Positions 3,453 through 28,302 of a stretch of 40,217 bases of DNA are shown here, piece by piece (the stretch's first letter is position 1; each line of letters begins with the position of its first letter). A model generated the notes under the pieces. That model was not told where the DNA came from, made no database searches, and saw nothing but the letters and a program-made list of their open reading frames with translations. Location of the stretch: assembly GCA_900320545.1 (NCBI GenBank), contig ONSU01000020.1:1-40217 (forward strand), given 5' to 3'. The translations under genes were made by a program, and so were the position numbers. Source of the DNA: an uncultured Bacteroidales bacterium. GTDB taxonomy: Bacteria; Bacteroidota; Bacteroidia; Bacteroidales; UBA932.

Positions 3453-4514
3453 TTAGTGGCGCCGAAGGAGGATGTGCGCCCAGTGGTGGAGAGTGCGGTA
3501 GAGCGGGGTGCCGCGGAGGATTTCGCCGCGCATCGTACGGCGGATGGCCCGGGCGAAGCCGAGACGGGGGAGTTCTTGTAGGAATGTTTCCCGGAGCGGA
3601 TGGCGTTGCGTCGGCTCCAGAATGGAGGGACGGTAGGCAAGGCGTTCATCCAGGGGGCGTCCGACGCTCCGGAAAGCGGGATTCGCCTTGCAGAACGCTT
3701 CGTAGATCCGAATCCCTGAAGGGGTGTTGAGACTGATGTAGGATACATTGTGGCCTTCGGCCTTGAACCCGTCCGCGGCACCGAGTCCGATGAAGTCGCC
3801 GAGGGTGATGTCGCCGATCCTTTCGGGGGAGGCGAAGGGGCATTGATAGCAGCCCTCCATCAGCGTGACGCCGCGAAGCATCGCCAGGAGATAGGGCTGC
3901 CTGCGGGCCTCCACGCTGTAGAGGCAATCATCTCCGTTCCAGATGCTCAGATGGAAGTCGTGCCCGTCGTTGCCGCGGAAGCGGACGTCGGTATAGGGCC
4001 GCCCGCCGATAAGATGCCGGATTTCGGCATCCAGATATTCTTTCGGCGGCGTCCCATGGCACAGCAGGTCCACGCACAGCAGACTCCCTTCCGTCCTGTC
4101 GTCTGCACCTTCCGTCATTCCGTTTGACTCTCCCGTCATTCCGGATTTGTTCCGGAATCTCTCCCAGCGGCTCCTTACTCCCGCCACCTGGCAGGGCGTC
4201 CCTACAAAAAGAACGTCTTTCCCGGCCTGGAGATCCGCTAGAAGCGCCTCGTATAATTCCGCCGGGAATGTGCCCCGTACATAGCGGGAACCCTTGGTGG
4301 TCTCCAATTCCCGGAGGGTGGTGGCCCGGATGACGCGGACGTCGGCGTCGGCCGTGAAAGCCGTGGCGTAAACCACGCCGCCGAGCGCTTCGATATAATA
4401 TTTCCCGAGCAGCCAGGCCGTTCCGCCGGAAGCGCATTTCCGGCTTTCCGGCAGGTTGGTGTTCCATCCCGCGAATACTTGCAGGGCCGTATGTCGGTTT
4501 GCTTTCACTGTCAT
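3453..4514 (-). CDS. Coenzyme F420 hydrogenase/dehydrogenase beta-subunit-like protein, short form with repeat insertion
   Basis: The 353-residue protein matches the FrhB-like family often paired with polysaccharide pyruvyl transferases. Marks are CASGGTAWLLGKYY near the N-terminus, VGTPCQVAG, LLCHGTPP, VRFRGNDG, and GCYQCPFASPERIGDITLGDF, whose cysteines fit the family's Fe-S and flavin site. Most such proteins begin with a two-cluster ferredoxin domain. That is absent here, because an in-frame TGA lies directly before the ATG. Between CQVAG and VDLLCHG there are about 21 extra residues, including heptads GMTGESN and GMTEGAD, encoded by a palindromic/tandem DNA repeat at 4093-4159. The physiological reaction in glycan synthesis is not known to me. 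It probably shares a transcript with the pyruvyl transferase upstream. Confidence 0.85.
   Translation of the reverse strand: MTVKANRHTALQVFAGWNTNLPESRKCASGGTAWLLGKYYIEALGGVVYATAFTADADVRVIRATTLRELETTKGSRYVRGTFPAELYEALLADLQAGKDVLFVGTPCQVAGVRSRWERFRNKSGMTGESNGMTEGADDRTEGSLLCVDLLCHGTPPKEYLDAEIRHLIGGRPYTDVRFRGNDGHDFHLSIWNGDDCLYSVEARRQPYLLAMLRGVTLMEGCYQCPFASPERIGDITLGDFIGLGAADGFKAEGHNVSYISLNTPSGIRIYEAFCKANPAFRSVGRPLDERLAYRPSILEPTQRHPLRETFLQELPRLGFARAIRRTMRGEILRGTPLYRTLHHWAHILLRRH
4093..4159 (-). repeat. GGAATGACGG-type element inside the F420-beta-like gene
   Basis: On the plus strand three units begin with GTCCTGTC (4093), GTCATTCC (4114) and GTCATTCC (4135), exactly 21 bp apart. The last ends in a palindrome CCGGA-TTTGT-TCCGG (4141-4155), a diverged copy of the hairpin at 6631. 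In protein this yields two heptads, GMTGESN and GMTEGAD, then DRTEGS. Confidence 0.78.
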
Positions 4515-5609
4515 TCAGTCTGCGAGGGCTTTTTCCAGATAAGCGGCGCTCTCTTTCCGAAGGATTTCCAGTCTTGCCCTTACAGGGGCGTAATCGATCG
4601 GCGCGGGCATTTCTCCCTGCCAGGTCCTGTCGTCGATTCCGAGCCGGTCCAGCAGGTCCTTCAGGCGGATGTTCTGCGAGGCGATATCACTGTCGGAGAA
4701 GCGTTTAAGGTTGATGAATTGACGTTCAAGAGCAATTGCGAGCGCCGTTCCGTGGAAGGAATCCGTGACGACGAGGGACGCGCCGCGCACGAGCGCGACG
4801 AACTCACGAAGCCCGGCGTCCGGAACGATGGTCGCGCCGGGGAGGGTGAAATCCGGATTCTCGCCGGAGGGAATGATGACGGCTTTCCTCCTGTCATCCC
4901 GAGGCAGAGAATAGGCCGAAGGGATCTTCTTTAAGATGTAATACAGTACATACCCTTCCGGAATTGCGGGCATCTGTCGGGCGGAGCCGGAGAAACTTTC
5001 CCAAAATTCCCGGTCCTGCAGGAGAACGGGATCCAGCACCGTGGCGATATCATCCCGTCCGGTCACCTCCGCAATACTTGAAGCGCCGCTTTGCTCACGC
5101 AGGCTTATATATTGGAAATCAGAGAGGTATTCTTTGACTTTTTCCTTGTATTCGTCCGGGATTTCCGCCGTGCCGATACTGGTGGCGTAGGAGATTTTCT
5201 TCTTGCCGGCGGCGAATTCCAGAAACTCGAATCCGCGGAAATGGTCGCGGCAGTTCCAGAGCTGGTCGCTGCCGGCGACGAAGAGATCCGTGCTCTCCAG
5301 AAGTCGGTGGACGTCGCCGGGCGTGTAGATGTCGGCGATCTGCATTTCCCTGCGGCAGAAGGAACGGATGCGGCGCGTCTTGGCGGGGAACCGGTCGCGG
5401 CCGTACTTCCAGAAGCGGCGGATCCCGTGGGCGTAGAAGAAGTTATCCTTGATGTTTTTGAGATTGAACGGCTCTTTGAATCTTCTGATAATCTTTACAT
5501 TGCAATCTCTTTCCTCAAGTGCTTTATAAAGTGCGTACGCCTGCAGGTTCGTGCCGTAGTTCGGAGTCCCGAACCACGTGACGAGCCCGATATTTTTCTT
5601 TGCGGCCAT
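4515..5609 (-). CDS. polysaccharide pyruvyl transferase family protein
   Basis: Members of this family (CsaB/WcaK-like) transfer pyruvyl ketals from phosphoenolpyruvate to sugars of surface polysaccharides. The N-terminus has IGLVTWFGTPNYGTNLQAYALYKAL, and later come DLFVAGSDQLWN, ISYATSIG, ISLREQSG and VVTDSFHGTALAIALERQF, the family's conserved C-terminal motif. I place the start at 5609 (MAAKKN) rather than the open ATG at 5630, because a promoter -7 element overlaps the latter region (5618-5625). The protein is then 364 residues. Its TGA stop is followed at once and in the same frame by the ATG of the F420-beta-like gene. A piece encoding IPSAYSLPRDDRRK near 4884-4925 looks like a second repeat family inside the gene. 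Confidence 0.9.
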   Translation of the reverse strand: MAAKKNIGLVTWFGTPNYGTNLQAYALYKALEERDCNVKIIRRFKEPFNLKNIKDNFFYAHGIRRFWKYGRDRFPAKTRRIRSFCRREMQIADIYTPGDVHRLLESTDLFVAGSDQLWNCRDHFRGFEFLEFAAGKKKISYATSIGTAEIPDEYKEKVKEYLSDFQYISLREQSGASSIAEVTGRDDIATVLDPVLLQDREFWESFSGSARQMPAIPEGYVLYYILKKIPSAYSLPRDDRRKAVIIPSGENPDFTLPGATIVPDAGLREFVALVRGASLVVTDSFHGTALAIALERQFINLKRFSDSDIASQNIRLKDLLDRLGIDDRTWQGEMPAPIDYAPVRARLEILRKESAAYLEKALAD

Positions 5610-6522: not shown

Positions 6523-6844
6523 AAGATCAGCGTCTAAAATTATCGTAAAACGATATTAACAAAAATGTTTCTACTCAAAACATCTTTGTTTCCTTTCCTT
6601 ATTTTCAATAAGATAGTATATTTTTGACGGATTCCCGGATCAAGTCCGGGAATGATGGAAAAACAAGCCCGGAATGACGAAAATTTACGCTCGGAATGAC
6701 GGGAAAACAGGCCCGGACTGACAGGAAAAAGAGGTCCGGATTGACGGAAAATCGGGGCGAAAACACTGAGAAAACAAGCTGGAAATTGACGCGATATCCC
6801 GCTCTCGAAAGGCGGACAAAACGGGTGTGGCGGGGCGTAAAAAA
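6523..6844. other. non-coding stretch between the glycosyltransferase and queE
   Basis: 322 bases without a credible gene. The first 100 are AT-rich and hold a small perfect hairpin, TATCGT (6541-6546) with ACGATA (6550-6555). The rest is an array of GGAATGACGG-type repeats described as a separate feature. The open frames here have no similarity I recognise and are built largely of the repeat. I see no clear terminator for either neighbour. Confidence 0.7.
6631..6750 (+). repeat. palindrome plus five tandem GGAATGACGG-type units
   Basis: A perfect 9-bp inverted repeat, ATTCCCGGA (6631-6639) and TCCGGGAAT (6645-6653), separated by TCAAG, opens the array. The core CGGAATGA then recurs in degenerate form at about 6647, 6670, 6692, 6714 and 6737, giving a spacing of 22-23 bases. 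The purine-rich filler between cores (GGAAAAACAAG, GGAAAACAG, GGAAAAAGAG) is also alike. Related elements lie inside coding genes at 4093-4159, 23980-24024 and 27797-27845. Confidence 0.85.
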
Positions 6845-12152: not shown

Positions 12153-12225
12153 GGGGTACTAGCTCAGTTGGTAGAGCGTTAGGTTCGCAATCTAAAGGTC
12201 AGGGGTTCGATCCCCCTGTGCTCCA
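12153..12225 (+). tRNA. tRNA-Ala (anticodon CGC)
   Basis: A full 73-nt cloverleaf can be folded. The acceptor is GGGGTAC with GTGCTCC, the D stem GCTC/GAGC, the anticodon stem TTAGG/TCTAA around loop TTCGCAA, and the T stem AGGGG/CCCCT with loop TTCGATC. The anticodon at 12186-12188 is CGC, reading the alanine codon GCG. Base pair 3-70 is G-U, the identity element for alanyl-tRNA synthetase, which supports the call. The 3' CCA is not encoded. Reading GCG with its own tRNA fits a GC-rich genome. Confidence 0.95.
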
Positions 12226-12227
12226 CG

Positions 12228-12262
12228 AAAAAAGGTTCGGCTTGGTTGCCGAACCTTTTTTT
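12228..12262 (+). terminator. intrinsic terminator of tRNA-Ala, extended hairpin
   Basis: AAAAAAGGTTCGGC and GCCGAACCTTTTTT pair around the loop TTGGTT, ending in a T tract. The pairing continues outward without a gap: 12218-12227, which is the last eight bases of the tRNA plus two, pairs with 12262-12271. The whole stem is 24 bp with one G-T pair. Confidence 0.88.
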
Positions 12263-12271
12263 GTGGAGCAC

Positions 12272-23773: not shown

Positions 23774-24903
23774 GGCAGTGAAATACGGCTCAGGATGCCC
23801 TGAAGATGGGCGATAGCGAGCCCGTAGTTGGTGATAGGCACTCCCGCAAGGAGTGCCTTTCTCGTGCGGGCGCGAACGAGCGACGCCGTAGCCACGCACG
23901 CCCCGCAGTGGATGATCAGGTTGTACGCTGAAAGGTCTTCCGGGAAGTCGTTCCCCGCCGCGATATCAATTTTCAGACCGTCCTCCTGCACCTCATGCCC
24001 GTCATTCCGGACCTGATCCGGAATCTGTGCGACTCTCCGCCGCAACAGCGCCGGGATCTTCACCCGGCCGATGTCCTCCGTGTCGGGGACGTGGGTGCAG
24101 GCCTCGGCGATGAGGACGCGGTCGCCGGGACGGAGCCGGTCGATGGCCCGGGCACCTTCGACAAAGACGCGGATGTCGCCCTTGGCCGCCGCGAGCAGCA
24201 CGGAGAAGGAGGTGAGGGGACATTCCGATGAAATGGCCGCATCGACGGCCTTGAAGACCTGCGAGTCGGTGATGACGAGATCCGGCAGTTTCCGGAGTCC
24301 GTCCAGGGCCGCCTGCAGGCCGGAAGGCTGGCAGCAGACAGGAATGCAGCCCGCGTCGAGCAACGCGCGGATGACCTGCACCTGCGGCAGGATGAGACGG
24401 CCCTTGGGGGCCTCGCTGTCCTGCGGCATGACAAGGACGACGGTGTCGCCGGGCCGCACGAGGGAGCCGAGAAGGGAGCGCTCTTCCGCATCGGGACGGG
24501 CGGATTGGAGCCGGCTCAGGAGCAGGGCAAGGCTGTCGTCGTCTATGGTGCCGCCGGAAGGAATTTCCACCACCGGGACGTCGGCTTTGCGGAGCATTTC
24601 AGCCCATCGGTCGTCCTCGGGATGGCCGGAGCGCAGCAGCACGGCGATGTCGGTGCTGTCGATGACGCGCTCCGTGAGACGCCGCCGCTCCTCGCCGAGC
24701 GGGCTCCTGTCGTCGTAGCCGGCCGTATCGACCAGCACGCAGGGGCCCAGCCCCGGAAGCTCGATGCGCTTCCGGACCGGGTCGGTCGTCGTGCCGGGCA
24801 TCGGGCTCACCAGCGAGACTTCCTGCCCCGCCAGCGCGTTGACCAGCGTGGACTTCCCGCTGTTGGCAGCCCCGAAAAAGGCGATTTGAAGCGGCCCTGT
24901 CAC
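23770..24903 (-). CDS. hydF: [FeFe] hydrogenase maturation GTPase HydF, with repeat insertion
   Basis: HydF is the GTPase scaffold that receives the diiron subcluster from HydE and HydG and hands it to HydA. The N-terminal GTPase domain has the P-loop GAANSGKS (residues 11-18) and DTAGYDD. The C-terminal cluster site is EACTHVP and HCGAC, matching the family's CxH...HCxxC pattern. Between these two there are 60 residues, against about 46-53 remembered for the family. The extra loop (IPDQVRNDGHEVQED) is encoded by a palindromic repeat at 23980-24024. It starts with GTG overlapping the stop of the DUF6440 gene (TAGTG). At 377 residues it is otherwise a little short for HydF. Confidence 0.94.
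   Translation of the reverse strand: MTGPLQIAFFGAANSGKSTLVNALAGQEVSLVSPMPGTTTDPVRKRIELPGLGPCVLVDTAGYDDRSPLGEERRRLTERVIDSTDIAVLLRSGHPEDDRWAEMLRKADVPVVEIPSGGTIDDDSLALLLSRLQSARPDAEERSLLGSLVRPGDTVVLVMPQDSEAPKGRLILPQVQVIRALLDAGCIPVCCQPSGLQAALDGLRKLPDLVITDSQVFKAVDAAISSECPLTSFSVLLAAAKGDIRVFVEGARAIDRLRPGDRVLIAEACTHVPDTEDIGRVKIPALLRRRVAQIPDQVRNDGHEVQEDGLKIDIAAGNDFPEDLSAYNLIIHCGACVATASLVRARTRKALLAGVPITNYGLAIAHLQGILSRISLP
23980..24024 (-). repeat. GGAATGACGG-type element inside hydF
   Basis: A perfect 8-bp inverted repeat ATTCCGGA (24004-24011) and TCCGGAAT (24017-24024) with CCTGA between. A degenerate tandem unit follows on the minus strand, GTCCTCC at 23980 against GTCATTCC at 24001, 21 bp apart. 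It encodes IPDQVRNDG and the following residues in HydF. Confidence 0.8.
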
Positions 24904-27612: not shown

Positions 27613-28302
27613 ATGGAAATCAAGCCGGTCGCATACTATCGGGGCCCGTTCGGGAGCAAGTTCGGCATTCCGCGGCAGAGCGGGGTGGTGGAGGGACTCC
27701 GCGGCGAGATCGTCTTCGAGCCCGCTTTCCGCAGCCCGGACGCCGTCCGGGGGCTGGAGGGCTTCGGACGCGTGTGGCTGCTCTGGGGGTTTGAAGATTC
27801 CAGGGACAAAGCCCGGAATGACGCCGGGCAAAGTCCGGTGTCCCTGACGGTGCGGCCGCCGCGGCTCGGCGGGAACCGGCGCGTGGGCGTTTTCGCCAGC
27901 CGGTCACCCTTCCGGCCCAATCCCCTCGGACTGAGTTGCGTCACGCTCGAATCCATTACGGACGGGCCCGTGTTGCACGTCCTGGGCGCAGACCTGATGG
28001 ACGGCACGCCCATTTACGACATCAAGCCATACATCCCGTACGCCGACGCTTTCCCGGAGGCGCGGGCCGGATTCGCCCCCGCGGCGCCTGCTCCCGTACT
28101 GGAAGTCGCTGAAGGGCCGCATTGGCGCAGTCCGTTCGACGAGCGGGATACGGCGACGCTCAAGGAGATTCTCTCCCTGGATCCCCGTCCGGCATTCCAT
28201 AACGACCCCGACCGGGTGTACGGTCTTCCTTTCGGCGGTTACGACGTGCGATTCCGCGTGGAGGGGGAGAGACTGATCCTGCTGGAGGCGGTCAGGGCAT
28301 AA
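27613..28302 (+). CDS. trmO: tRNA t6A37 N6-methyltransferase TrmO, with repeat-derived loop
   Basis: TrmO (TsaA/YaeB family) methylates N6-threonylcarbamoyl-adenosine 37 in tRNA-Thr to m6t6A. The 229-residue protein has the family motifs FGIPRQSG, TVRPPRLGGNRRVGVFASRSPFRPNPLGLS and LMDGTPIYDIKPYIPYAD, and a C-terminal domain with DPRPAFH and YDVRF. Between GF and TVRPP it has EDSRDKARNDAGQSPVSL, about eight residues more than the E. coli protein as I remember it. The DNA there is a GGAATGACG-type palindromic repeat (27797-27845). It stands alone between hydE and the polyphosphate module. Confidence 0.9.
   Translation: MEIKPVAYYRGPFGSKFGIPRQSGVVEGLRGEIVFEPAFRSPDAVRGLEGFGRVWLLWGFEDSRDKARNDAGQSPVSLTVRPPRLGGNRRVGVFASRSPFRPNPLGLSCVTLESITDGPVLHVLGADLMDGTPIYDIKPYIPYADAFPEARAGFAPAAPAPVLEVAEGPHWRSPFDERDTATLKEILSLDPRPAFHNDPDRVYGLPFGGYDVRFRVEGERLILLEAVRA
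27797..27845 (+). repeat. GGAATGACG-type element inside trmO
   Basis: ATTCC-A-GGG (27797-27805) pairs with CCCGGAAT (27812-27819), with one bulged A. A second hairpin CCGGG-CAAAG-TCCGG follows, and the CAAAG loops are 22 bp apart. It encodes SRDKARNDAGQSP in TrmO. Confidence 0.65.

What the first reader, a model, noticed from the sequence alone, without database searches (positions are those of the whole stretch)
4093..4159. Palindromic/tandem repeat inserted in frame in an F420-hydrogenase-beta-like gene
Three units exactly 21 bp apart encode two 7-residue repeats (GMTGESN, GMTEGAD) and the start of a third (DRTEGS), next to a hairpin like the intergenic one at 6631. From memory the family has about 14 residues between CQVAG and VD..CHG; here there are 35, an excess of about 21 residues or three units. 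This suggests a repeat that invades genes and is kept where its length preserves the frame.
Basis: partly seen in the sequence, partly recalled or inferred. Interest (0 to 1): 0.75.

Follow-up and report, generated by a model that had tools for sequence, protein, structure and literature searches.

The report
In-frame REP hairpin with copied tail
A short DNA hairpin scattered through this bacterium's genome also sits, in frame, inside genes, where it adds what looks like a floppy loop to the protein and carries a tail of copies of its own right arm; gene-invading hairpins of this class were known, but the copied tail and the change of hairpins at the same spot between species look new.

Summary
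On the minus strand, ORF 3453-4514 (FrhB_FdhB_C) carries a perfect 8-bp hairpin (4138-4158), a CGTC tag and right-arm copies 21 bp apart, the third degenerate. The hairpin motif has 76 matches in this genome, the reversed control 0. By tag, stem and loop it belongs to the published CGTC-tagged REPs, known inside genes. Fifteen parsed homologs lack the segment (11-14 residues); this species and two relatives have it (34-37), so the insertion is old. The relatives keep a hairpin at the same site, one with different, still paired arms. Hairpins also lie inside Pfam spans of HydF, ArgS, an FGGY kinase and others. New here: a polar tail that looks like tandem duplication of the hairpin's own right arm plus about 11 bp of flank; spacing is a multiple of three in 20 of 22 genic and 12 of 29 other arrays. 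What moves the hairpin is unknown; RAYT counts do not track it. Verdict: new variant of a known kind.

The parts
3453..4514 (-). Host gene: F420 hydrogenase/dehydrogenase beta-subunit-like protein (FrhB_FdhB_C), 353 aa
   Evidence: ORF, Pfam PF04432 E 7.7e-11 at residues 99-276
4138..4158 (-). Hairpin core ATTCCGGAACAAATCCGGAAT, 8-bp stem, 5-nt loop
4134..4137 (+). Unpaired CGTC tag at one end of the hairpin (GACG when read with the gene)
   Evidence: tag definition from PMC3733652
4114..4121 (-). First tail copy of the right arm (GGAATGAC), 21 bp from the hairpin's own
4093..4100 (-). Second, degenerate tail copy (GACAGGAC), another 21 bp on
4089..4160 (-). Segment foreign to the family: residues about 119-142; 20 residues net over the closest homolog without it (L098)
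   Evidence: residues 129-142 are the only stretch of the model with pLDDT below 50
6630..6745 (+). Intergenic sister element: 9-bp-stem hairpin plus a tail of at least four units, about 22-bp spacing, arms less exact with distance
24002..24024 (-). Sister hairpin in frame inside HydF (HydF_tetramer domain)
27797..27821 (+). Sister hairpin with imperfect stem (5 outer pairs) in frame inside a TrmO-like gene
4894..4925 (-). Variant CGTC-like repeat (ATCCC...GGGAT-GAC), recognised by eye, in the neighbouring PS_pyruv_trans gene, where species G188 has a hairpin plus 21-bp copies in the other orientation

Best explanation
It is a CGTC-tagged REP (a 21-25 nt palindromic repeat) that entered this gene before this species and two relatives split and has stayed in frame since, as a probably unstructured loop between a helix and the strand that leads into VDLLCHG. 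After insertion two local processes act on it. (1) The right arm plus about 11 bp of downstream flank (in some copies loop plus right arm plus about 7 bp) is tandemly duplicated on the CGTC side, giving a polar tail of mostly 18-24 bp units; inside genes, units that keep the frame survive. (2) Both hairpin arms can change together between species, most likely because one REP variant replaces another (gene conversion or re-insertion at an occupied site) or because replication template switching re-copies one arm from the other. Shown: identity of the repeat, in-frame presence, same-site occupancy in relatives, polarity of the tail, match of tail arms to their own hairpin, frame bias. Inferred: slippage or template switching as the agent, and selective neutrality of the loop. 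Unknown: what first moved the hairpin.
For: Copies: 76 pattern matches against 0 control; 61 distinct hairpins with a stem of 7 or more in the DNA fetched around them; stems 8-9 bp in 55 of 61, loop 4-5 nt in 47 of 61, GACG after the arm in 42 of 61. Insertion: 15 parsed homologs with 11-14 residues against 34, 34 and 37 in three species (4 further homologs were not parsed by the motif). HydF: 27 of 29 other orthologs examined lack the segment. Relatives: same FrhB site filled with arms CCGGA/TCCGG, CCCGG/CCGGG and CCGGA/TCCGG, tail steps of 21, 18 and 21 bp, all open. Tail: half-sites within one mismatch, downstream direct 33 against 3.7 in shuffles (maximum 9); upstream direct 4, inverted 1 downstream and 5 upstream; 23 of 61 elements have one within 130 nt, 19 of 61 at 18-27 bp. 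Tail arm 5-mer equals its own hairpin's in 32 of 56, 10.0 expected by permutation (maximum 21); the 8 nt after the arm match 4.32 against 2.38 permuted. Species-specific tails: G350 two units where this genome has none; G188 four near-exact 21-bp units. Structure: mean pLDDT 86.7; only residues 129-142 below 50.
Against: Spacers in older tails (6631) have diverged while arms stay alike, which plain duplication does not explain. Only 5 of 29 same-orientation orthologous pairs show changes on both sides of the stem, and one-sided changes could not be counted because the search demanded an intact stem; the ArgS copy of G350 has a decayed right arm. Some sites hold the hairpin in opposite orientation in relatives (FAD-dependent protein gene), which local turnover alone cannot produce. 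ArgS here shows no net insertion; the hairpin stands in place of a variable linker. Tail arms differ from their hairpin's 5-mer in 24 of 56. Low pLDDT of the loop may reflect that only 3 of 22 aligned proteins cover it.
Confidence: 0.75

Rival explanations
1. RAYT-driven REP: a Y1 (HUH) transposase of the REP-associated kind excises and inserts the hairpin and its units, and lengthens the tail by repeated insertion behind GAC.
For: Four Y1_Tnp matches in this genome, three over Pfam's cut-off, and matches in 47 of 61 genomes of the genus sample, own included; the four own genes have tandem repeats beside them, 52-bp steps in three and 228-bp steps downstream in the fourth, and an imperfect CGTC-like hairpin ends the array of L087. 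3 hairpins (2 of this family, 1 variant stem) in 105 kb of RAYT loci against 0 in 197 kb of loci around FrhB and ArgS homologs (not a matched control).
Against: No significant relation of RAYT count with tail count (rho 0.13, p 0.33) or hairpin count (rho 0.23, p 0.07) over 61 genomes; G107 (98% complete) has no RAYT candidate but 7 tail pairs. None of the four own RAYT loci holds a hairpin with a stem of 7 or more. PMC3733652 likewise reports no transposase association for CGTC REPs.
Confidence: 0.2
2. Repeated independent insertion at a few permissive sites: the relatives did not inherit the same insertion; each gained its own REP in the same tolerant loop.
For: Opposite orientations at the same site in relatives (FAD gene); different REP kinds, recognised by eye, in the same HydF loop in G000, G293 and G149; different arms at the FrhB site.
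Against: At the FrhB site the flank up to AGATTCC and the start of the spacer are similar in all three species and the reading frame of the hairpin is the same; at C37:34944 the spacer CGCGAAGGGTG is shared with G188 although hairpin and tail arms differ together.
Confidence: 0.3
3. Selected nucleic-acid function: the hairpin is kept for a role as DNA or RNA (protein binding every two helical turns, mRNA stability, attenuation), and the coding use is secondary.
For: Modal 21-bp spacing outside genes too (8 of 29, p 0.003 against an even spread over 18-28), arms conserved while spacers drift (6631), paired changes.
Against: Elements lie in either orientation and in several reading frames in unrelated genes; empty sites in relatives, such as C37:46296 in G188.
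Confidence: 0.2
4. A conserved protein loop of the FrhB family that happens to look repetitive.
For: Three species share the loop.
Against: 15 of 15 other parsed homologs lack it, and the DNA is the genome-wide repeat.
Confidence: 0.02

Closest known systems
CGTC-tagged REPs (Di Nocera, De Gregorio and Rocco 2013, PMC3733652; parts 1-2 of 8 of the text, the genome distribution section and part 1 of 2 of the discussion read, other passages by search; its figures and additional files not seen)
   Same: CGTC tag, 8-9 bp stem beginning with AT, 4-5 nt loop, occurrence in Bacteroidetes, intragenic copies including tRNA synthetase genes, no transposase tie
   Different: Opposite unpaired end is mostly AG before ATTCC (CT when read the paper's way) rather than CCA; there head-tail dimers are negligible and clusters rare, here 19 of 61 carry a head-tail half-unit 18-27 bp downstream
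Rickettsia palindromic elements (RPE-4 and RPE-6 are CGTC REPs; passages of the review PMC10969869)
   Same: Palindromic repeat in frame inside unrelated genes, tolerated by the protein
   Different: RPEs as reviewed are about 150 bp with a conserved peptide; here 21-25 bp cores plus a variable tail, several reading frames
REPINs and RAYT systems (search listing; passages of PMC6006769)
   Same: Short palindromes with a tag, many copies per genome
   Different: GT[AG]G-type tag and REPs beside the RAYT gene; here CGTC tag and no RAYT correlation
BrickBuilt MITE of Porphyromonas gingivalis (PMC4596501, parts 1-2 of 9 read)
   Same: Bacteroidales repeat with a tandem 23-nt minisatellite and a leader
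   Different: Different consensus, small inverted-repeat ends, always intergenic
Template-switch maintenance of hairpins (PMC8794818, PMC8604942; abstracts and outlines)
   Same: Arms homogenised, multi-base compensatory changes, loop inversion
   Different: Described there for RNA genes and for yeast coding repeats; here only 1 hairpin in 203 shows an inverted loop (L062)

Membership tests
CGTC-tagged REP superfamily | Unpaired CGTC (or TGTC/CCTC) at one end | tested here: met
   GACG follows the arm in 42 of 61, GACA in 9 of 61; this copy has CGTC
CGTC-tagged REP superfamily | Stem 8-9 bp | tested here: met
   55 of 61 (34 of 8 bp, 21 of 9 bp), 6 of 7 bp; stems under 7 were excluded beforehand
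CGTC-tagged REP superfamily | Loop 4-5 nt | tested here: met
   47 of 61
CGTC-tagged REP superfamily | Short unpaired end opposite the tag, most fitting CCA (described as usual, not strict) | tested here: not met
   NAG precedes ATTCC in 51 of 61, i.e. CTN instead of CCA
CGTC-tagged REP superfamily | Head-head dimers prevail, head-tail negligible, clusters rare (descriptive) | tested here: not met
   Head-tail half-units 18-27 bp downstream in 19 of 61; these are half-units, not whole REPs; head-head pairs were not counted
CGTC-tagged REP superfamily | No associated transposase gene | tested here: met
   No significant association of counts over 61 genomes; against it, 3 hairpins in RAYT loci and 0 in an unmatched control
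RAYT/REPIN system | GTAG-type tag and REPs flanking the RAYT gene | tested here: not met
   Tag is CGTC; 0 hairpins of stem 7 or more in the own RAYT loci, 3 in 29 congeneric loci; RAYT flanks were not searched for GTAG REPs
Rickettsia palindromic elements | In-frame insertion into genes for known proteins | tested here: met
   Inside Pfam spans of FrhB, HydF, ArgS, GH2, FGGY kinase and FAD-dependent proteins, and of a GAF match just under its cut-off
Rickettsia palindromic elements | Sequence families RPE-1 to RPE-10 | not tested
   No Rickettsia sequence was compared
BrickBuilt MITE | 23-nt unit with its published consensus, inverted-repeat ends, intergenic only | tested here: not met
   The consensus read does not resemble the unit here by eye; copies lie in genes

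The most novel reading that the evidence does not exclude
A CGTC REP is a self-copying seed: the hairpin makes replication stall and duplicate its own right arm in steps of two helical turns (21 bp), and arm-to-arm and arm-to-tail copying keeps the copies at a site alike while their sequence drifts. In genes, the coincidence that two turns are seven codons lets the tail grow without breaking the frame, so that these hairpins act as a steady source of new disordered loops in essential enzymes, without any transposase.
Probability: 0.25. Interest if true: 0.7.

Novelty: new variant of a known kind. Interest (0 to 1): 0.5.

Why it matters
How CGTC REPs spread is left open in the abstract of PMC3733652, and why they stay palindromic is not settled by what I read. 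Here is a large Bacteroidales genus in which the same sites can be compared filled, empty, inverted and re-tailed between related species, including genes usually essential (ArgS, CoaE, IleS-like; essentiality from general knowledge). That makes two questions testable by sequence alone: whether hairpins copy their arms locally, and whether they feed new loops to proteins.

Tried and rejected
RAYT as the mover: searched own genome and a 61-genome sample; counts do not support it, though RAYT loci held 3 hairpins against 0 in an unmatched control. Strict 22-bp unit: rejected, first spacings run 18-28 (searched 16-28) with a mode of 21. 21 bp as a sign of frame selection: rejected, it is the mode outside genes as well. 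Loop inversion as a frequent mark of template switching: 1 of 203 hairpins (159 forward, 43 neither). Compensatory count as proof of selection: rejected, since one-sided changes are excluded by the way hairpins were found. Tail spacer as a plain copy of the loop: true only for a few (9-nt identity 4.21 against 3.35 permuted); flank copying fits better. ORF-based gene calls favour multiples of three because the half-site contains TGA; allowed for. The coding scores printed were mislabelled by my format string; one search replaced them. Literature: the listings (10-20 papers shown of up to thousands) showed no report of right-arm tails on CGTC REPs or of such elements in this genus; only open-licence PMC papers are held, so this is weak. 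Spread in the order: 13 of 197 other genomes match a strict pattern, patchy.

Full report
What is there. ORF 3453-4514 on the minus strand codes for a 353-residue FrhB_FdhB_C protein. Read with the gene, it contains GAG ATTCCGGA ACAAA TCCGGAAT GACGG, a perfect 8-bp stem with a 5-nt loop at 4138-4158, followed by right-arm half-sites 21 bp apart, the third one degenerate. The reversed pattern gave no hit in the genome, the pattern itself 76, 40 forward and 36 reverse. In the DNA fetched around them 75 distinct matches were printed, of which 61 have a stem of at least 7 bp; the others, with shorter stems, were dropped before the counts that follow.

What family. Tag, stem and loop fit the CGTC-tagged REPs of PMC3733652: GACG or GACA after the arm in 51 of 61, stem 8-9 in 55 of 61, loop 4-5 in 47 of 61. 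That paper lists Bacteroidetes among the hosts, reports copies inside genes, tRNA synthetases among them, and finds no transposase tie. Two descriptive features differ: the other end reads NAG before ATTCC in 51 of 61 instead of the CCA type, and head-tail arrangement, negligible there, is common here as half-units.

In genes. I scanned 20 own-genome ORFs that span or adjoin hairpins with Pfam (1 of the 3 proteins, 10, 9). Hairpins lie inside the span of a Pfam match in FrhB, HydF, ArgS (anticodon domain), GH2, FGGY kinase and a FAD-dependent protein, and in a GAF match just under its cut-off; in CoaE the best match stretch ends at residue 157 and the hairpin is at 184; a TrmO-like gene (inside the match) and a TsaB-like gene (outside it, Pfam TsaD) carry hairpins with weaker stems. 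In the other ORFs the hairpin is outside the Pfam span, or there was no Pfam match (L034, L067). Peptides differ because frame and orientation differ (for example IPDQVRNDG, FRNKSGMT, HSGLDPES).

Insertion, and how old. Fifteen homologs whose motifs could be parsed have 11-14 residues between CQVA and VDLLCHG, four could not be parsed, and three species have 34, 34 and 37 (L096 and L097 are identical over this segment to L094 and L095 and are counted once). In those three the site, the preceding AGATTCC, the beginning of the spacer and the reading frame are alike, but arms or tail differ: 21-bp, 18-bp and exact 21-bp steps. So I infer that the insertion predates their split. HydF tells a similar story: 27 of 29 other orthologs lack the segment; G293 and G149 have what look by eye like other REP variants in the same loop, and G188 has a related hairpin there. 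ArgS is different: no net gain, the hairpin stands in place of a variable linker, is decayed in G350 and absent in G188.

Turnover between relatives. G188 and G350 are the closest matches by ArgS (94% and 93% identity). I compared hairpin sites of the three genomes, using only DNA fetched around hairpins (52 and 37 extra stretches plus search loci). G188 is 73% complete, and the listing of G350's 71 matches was cut, so sites are missed and empty sites are under-counted. Among 29 same-orientation orthologous pairs 7 hairpins are identical and 5 have two-sided stem changes, 9 base pairs in all; in a few of the 29 the aligned flank ends more than 100 nt from the hairpin. One-sided changes cannot appear in this sample. 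At some sites the hairpin is inverted in the relative, including one inside the FAD-dependent protein gene in both relatives, and some sites are empty, such as C37:46296 in G188. At C37:34944 this genome has CTGG in hairpin and tail, and G188 has CCGG in both (tail TCCGGGATGA), with the same spacer: arms and tail changed together. This is one example.

The tail. Half-sites within one mismatch lie downstream in direct orientation 33 times in 61 elements (shuffles 3.7, maximum 9), against 4 upstream direct, 1 downstream inverted and 5 upstream inverted; 23 of 61 elements have one within 130 nt and 19 of 61 at 18-27 bp. Across 203 hairpins from all fetched loci, 56 have a first tail site 16-28 bp on (58 under a slightly different filter). 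The tail arm's 5-mer equals its own hairpin's in 32 of 56 (10.0 by permutation, maximum 21), and the flank after the arm tends to be repeated as well (4.32 of 8 against 2.38; at least 6 of 8 alike in 18 of 56). Hence I read the unit as a local tandem copy of right arm plus about 11 bp, sometimes with the loop (L031, L083/G350). Units are exact or nearly so and present in one species only in several places (G350 at L324, G188 in the neighbouring PS_pyruv_trans gene), so the process is recent or continuing.

Frame. Spacing is a multiple of three in 20 of 22 arrays spanned by an open frame with at least 80 codons on either side, 12 of 29 outside, 3 of 5 unclear. Because the half-site holds TGA, an open frame favours multiples of three about two to one; against that expectation p is 0.001. 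With a Pfam match 16 of 18 hold, p 0.006; among the 18, the DUF349 match is just under its cut-off and the L095 copy is counted by its homology to the window protein, not by a scan; the other four of the 22 were unmatched (L067, L273, L283) or not scanned (L274). Some arrays are orthologous to each other (FrhB twice, IleS-like perhaps twice, L067/L273), so the number of independent events is lower. The commonest spacing is 21 bp inside (13 of 22) and outside genes (8 of 29).

Protein. An AlphaFold model on 22 homologs has mean pLDDT 86.7 and a single stretch below 50, residues 129-142, between helix 107-123 and strand 145-150. This fits a tolerated disordered loop; thin alignment depth there is an alternative reason. 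Against the solved HydF chain 3qq5 the own HydF shows 15 unmatched residues around the hairpin segment.

Mover. Y1_Tnp genes are common in the genus sample (47 of 61 genomes), but their number does not track hairpins or tails, and one nearly complete genome has no candidate at all but has tails. On the other side, 3 hairpins lie in 105 kb of RAYT loci and none in 197 kb of other gene loci. I leave the mover open. Name of the genus: not given by the tools; that it is Cryptobacteroides is my guess from its size and a water-buffalo MAG title.

Judgement. Ordinary in kind (a known REP class known to enter genes), unusual in its polar, self-derived tail and in the changes at orthologous sites.

Noticed in passing
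L087, L088, L089, L090 (G000 C47, C50, C24, C34): The four Y1 (RAYT-like) genes have tandem repeats beside them, each of a different sequence by eye: 52-bp steps in L087, L089 and L090, 228-bp steps downstream in L088.
   Followed up: partly
L065 (C35:23328) and L052 (C22:140237): CGTC hairpins directly followed by units that look like the repeats around the RAYTs of L087 and L089; seen by eye, not tested.
   Followed up: no
window 4894-4925: A variant CGTC-like repeat with a longer loop in the PS_pyruv_trans gene; the relative G188 has a different REP with 21-bp copies there in the other orientation.
   Followed up: partly
G236, several contigs: A second, longer array type with about 40-bp steps (GGAATGACGGTTCAATTGCCGCAGGCGC...), on many contigs.
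   Followed up: no
G187:C14:61927-62304: A long run of right-arm units with mixed 18- and 19-bp spacing, ending in one hairpin (62282-62304).
   Followed up: no
window 12218-12271: Long near-perfect inverted repeat (24-nt arms, 6-nt gap) unlike the REP.
   Followed up: no
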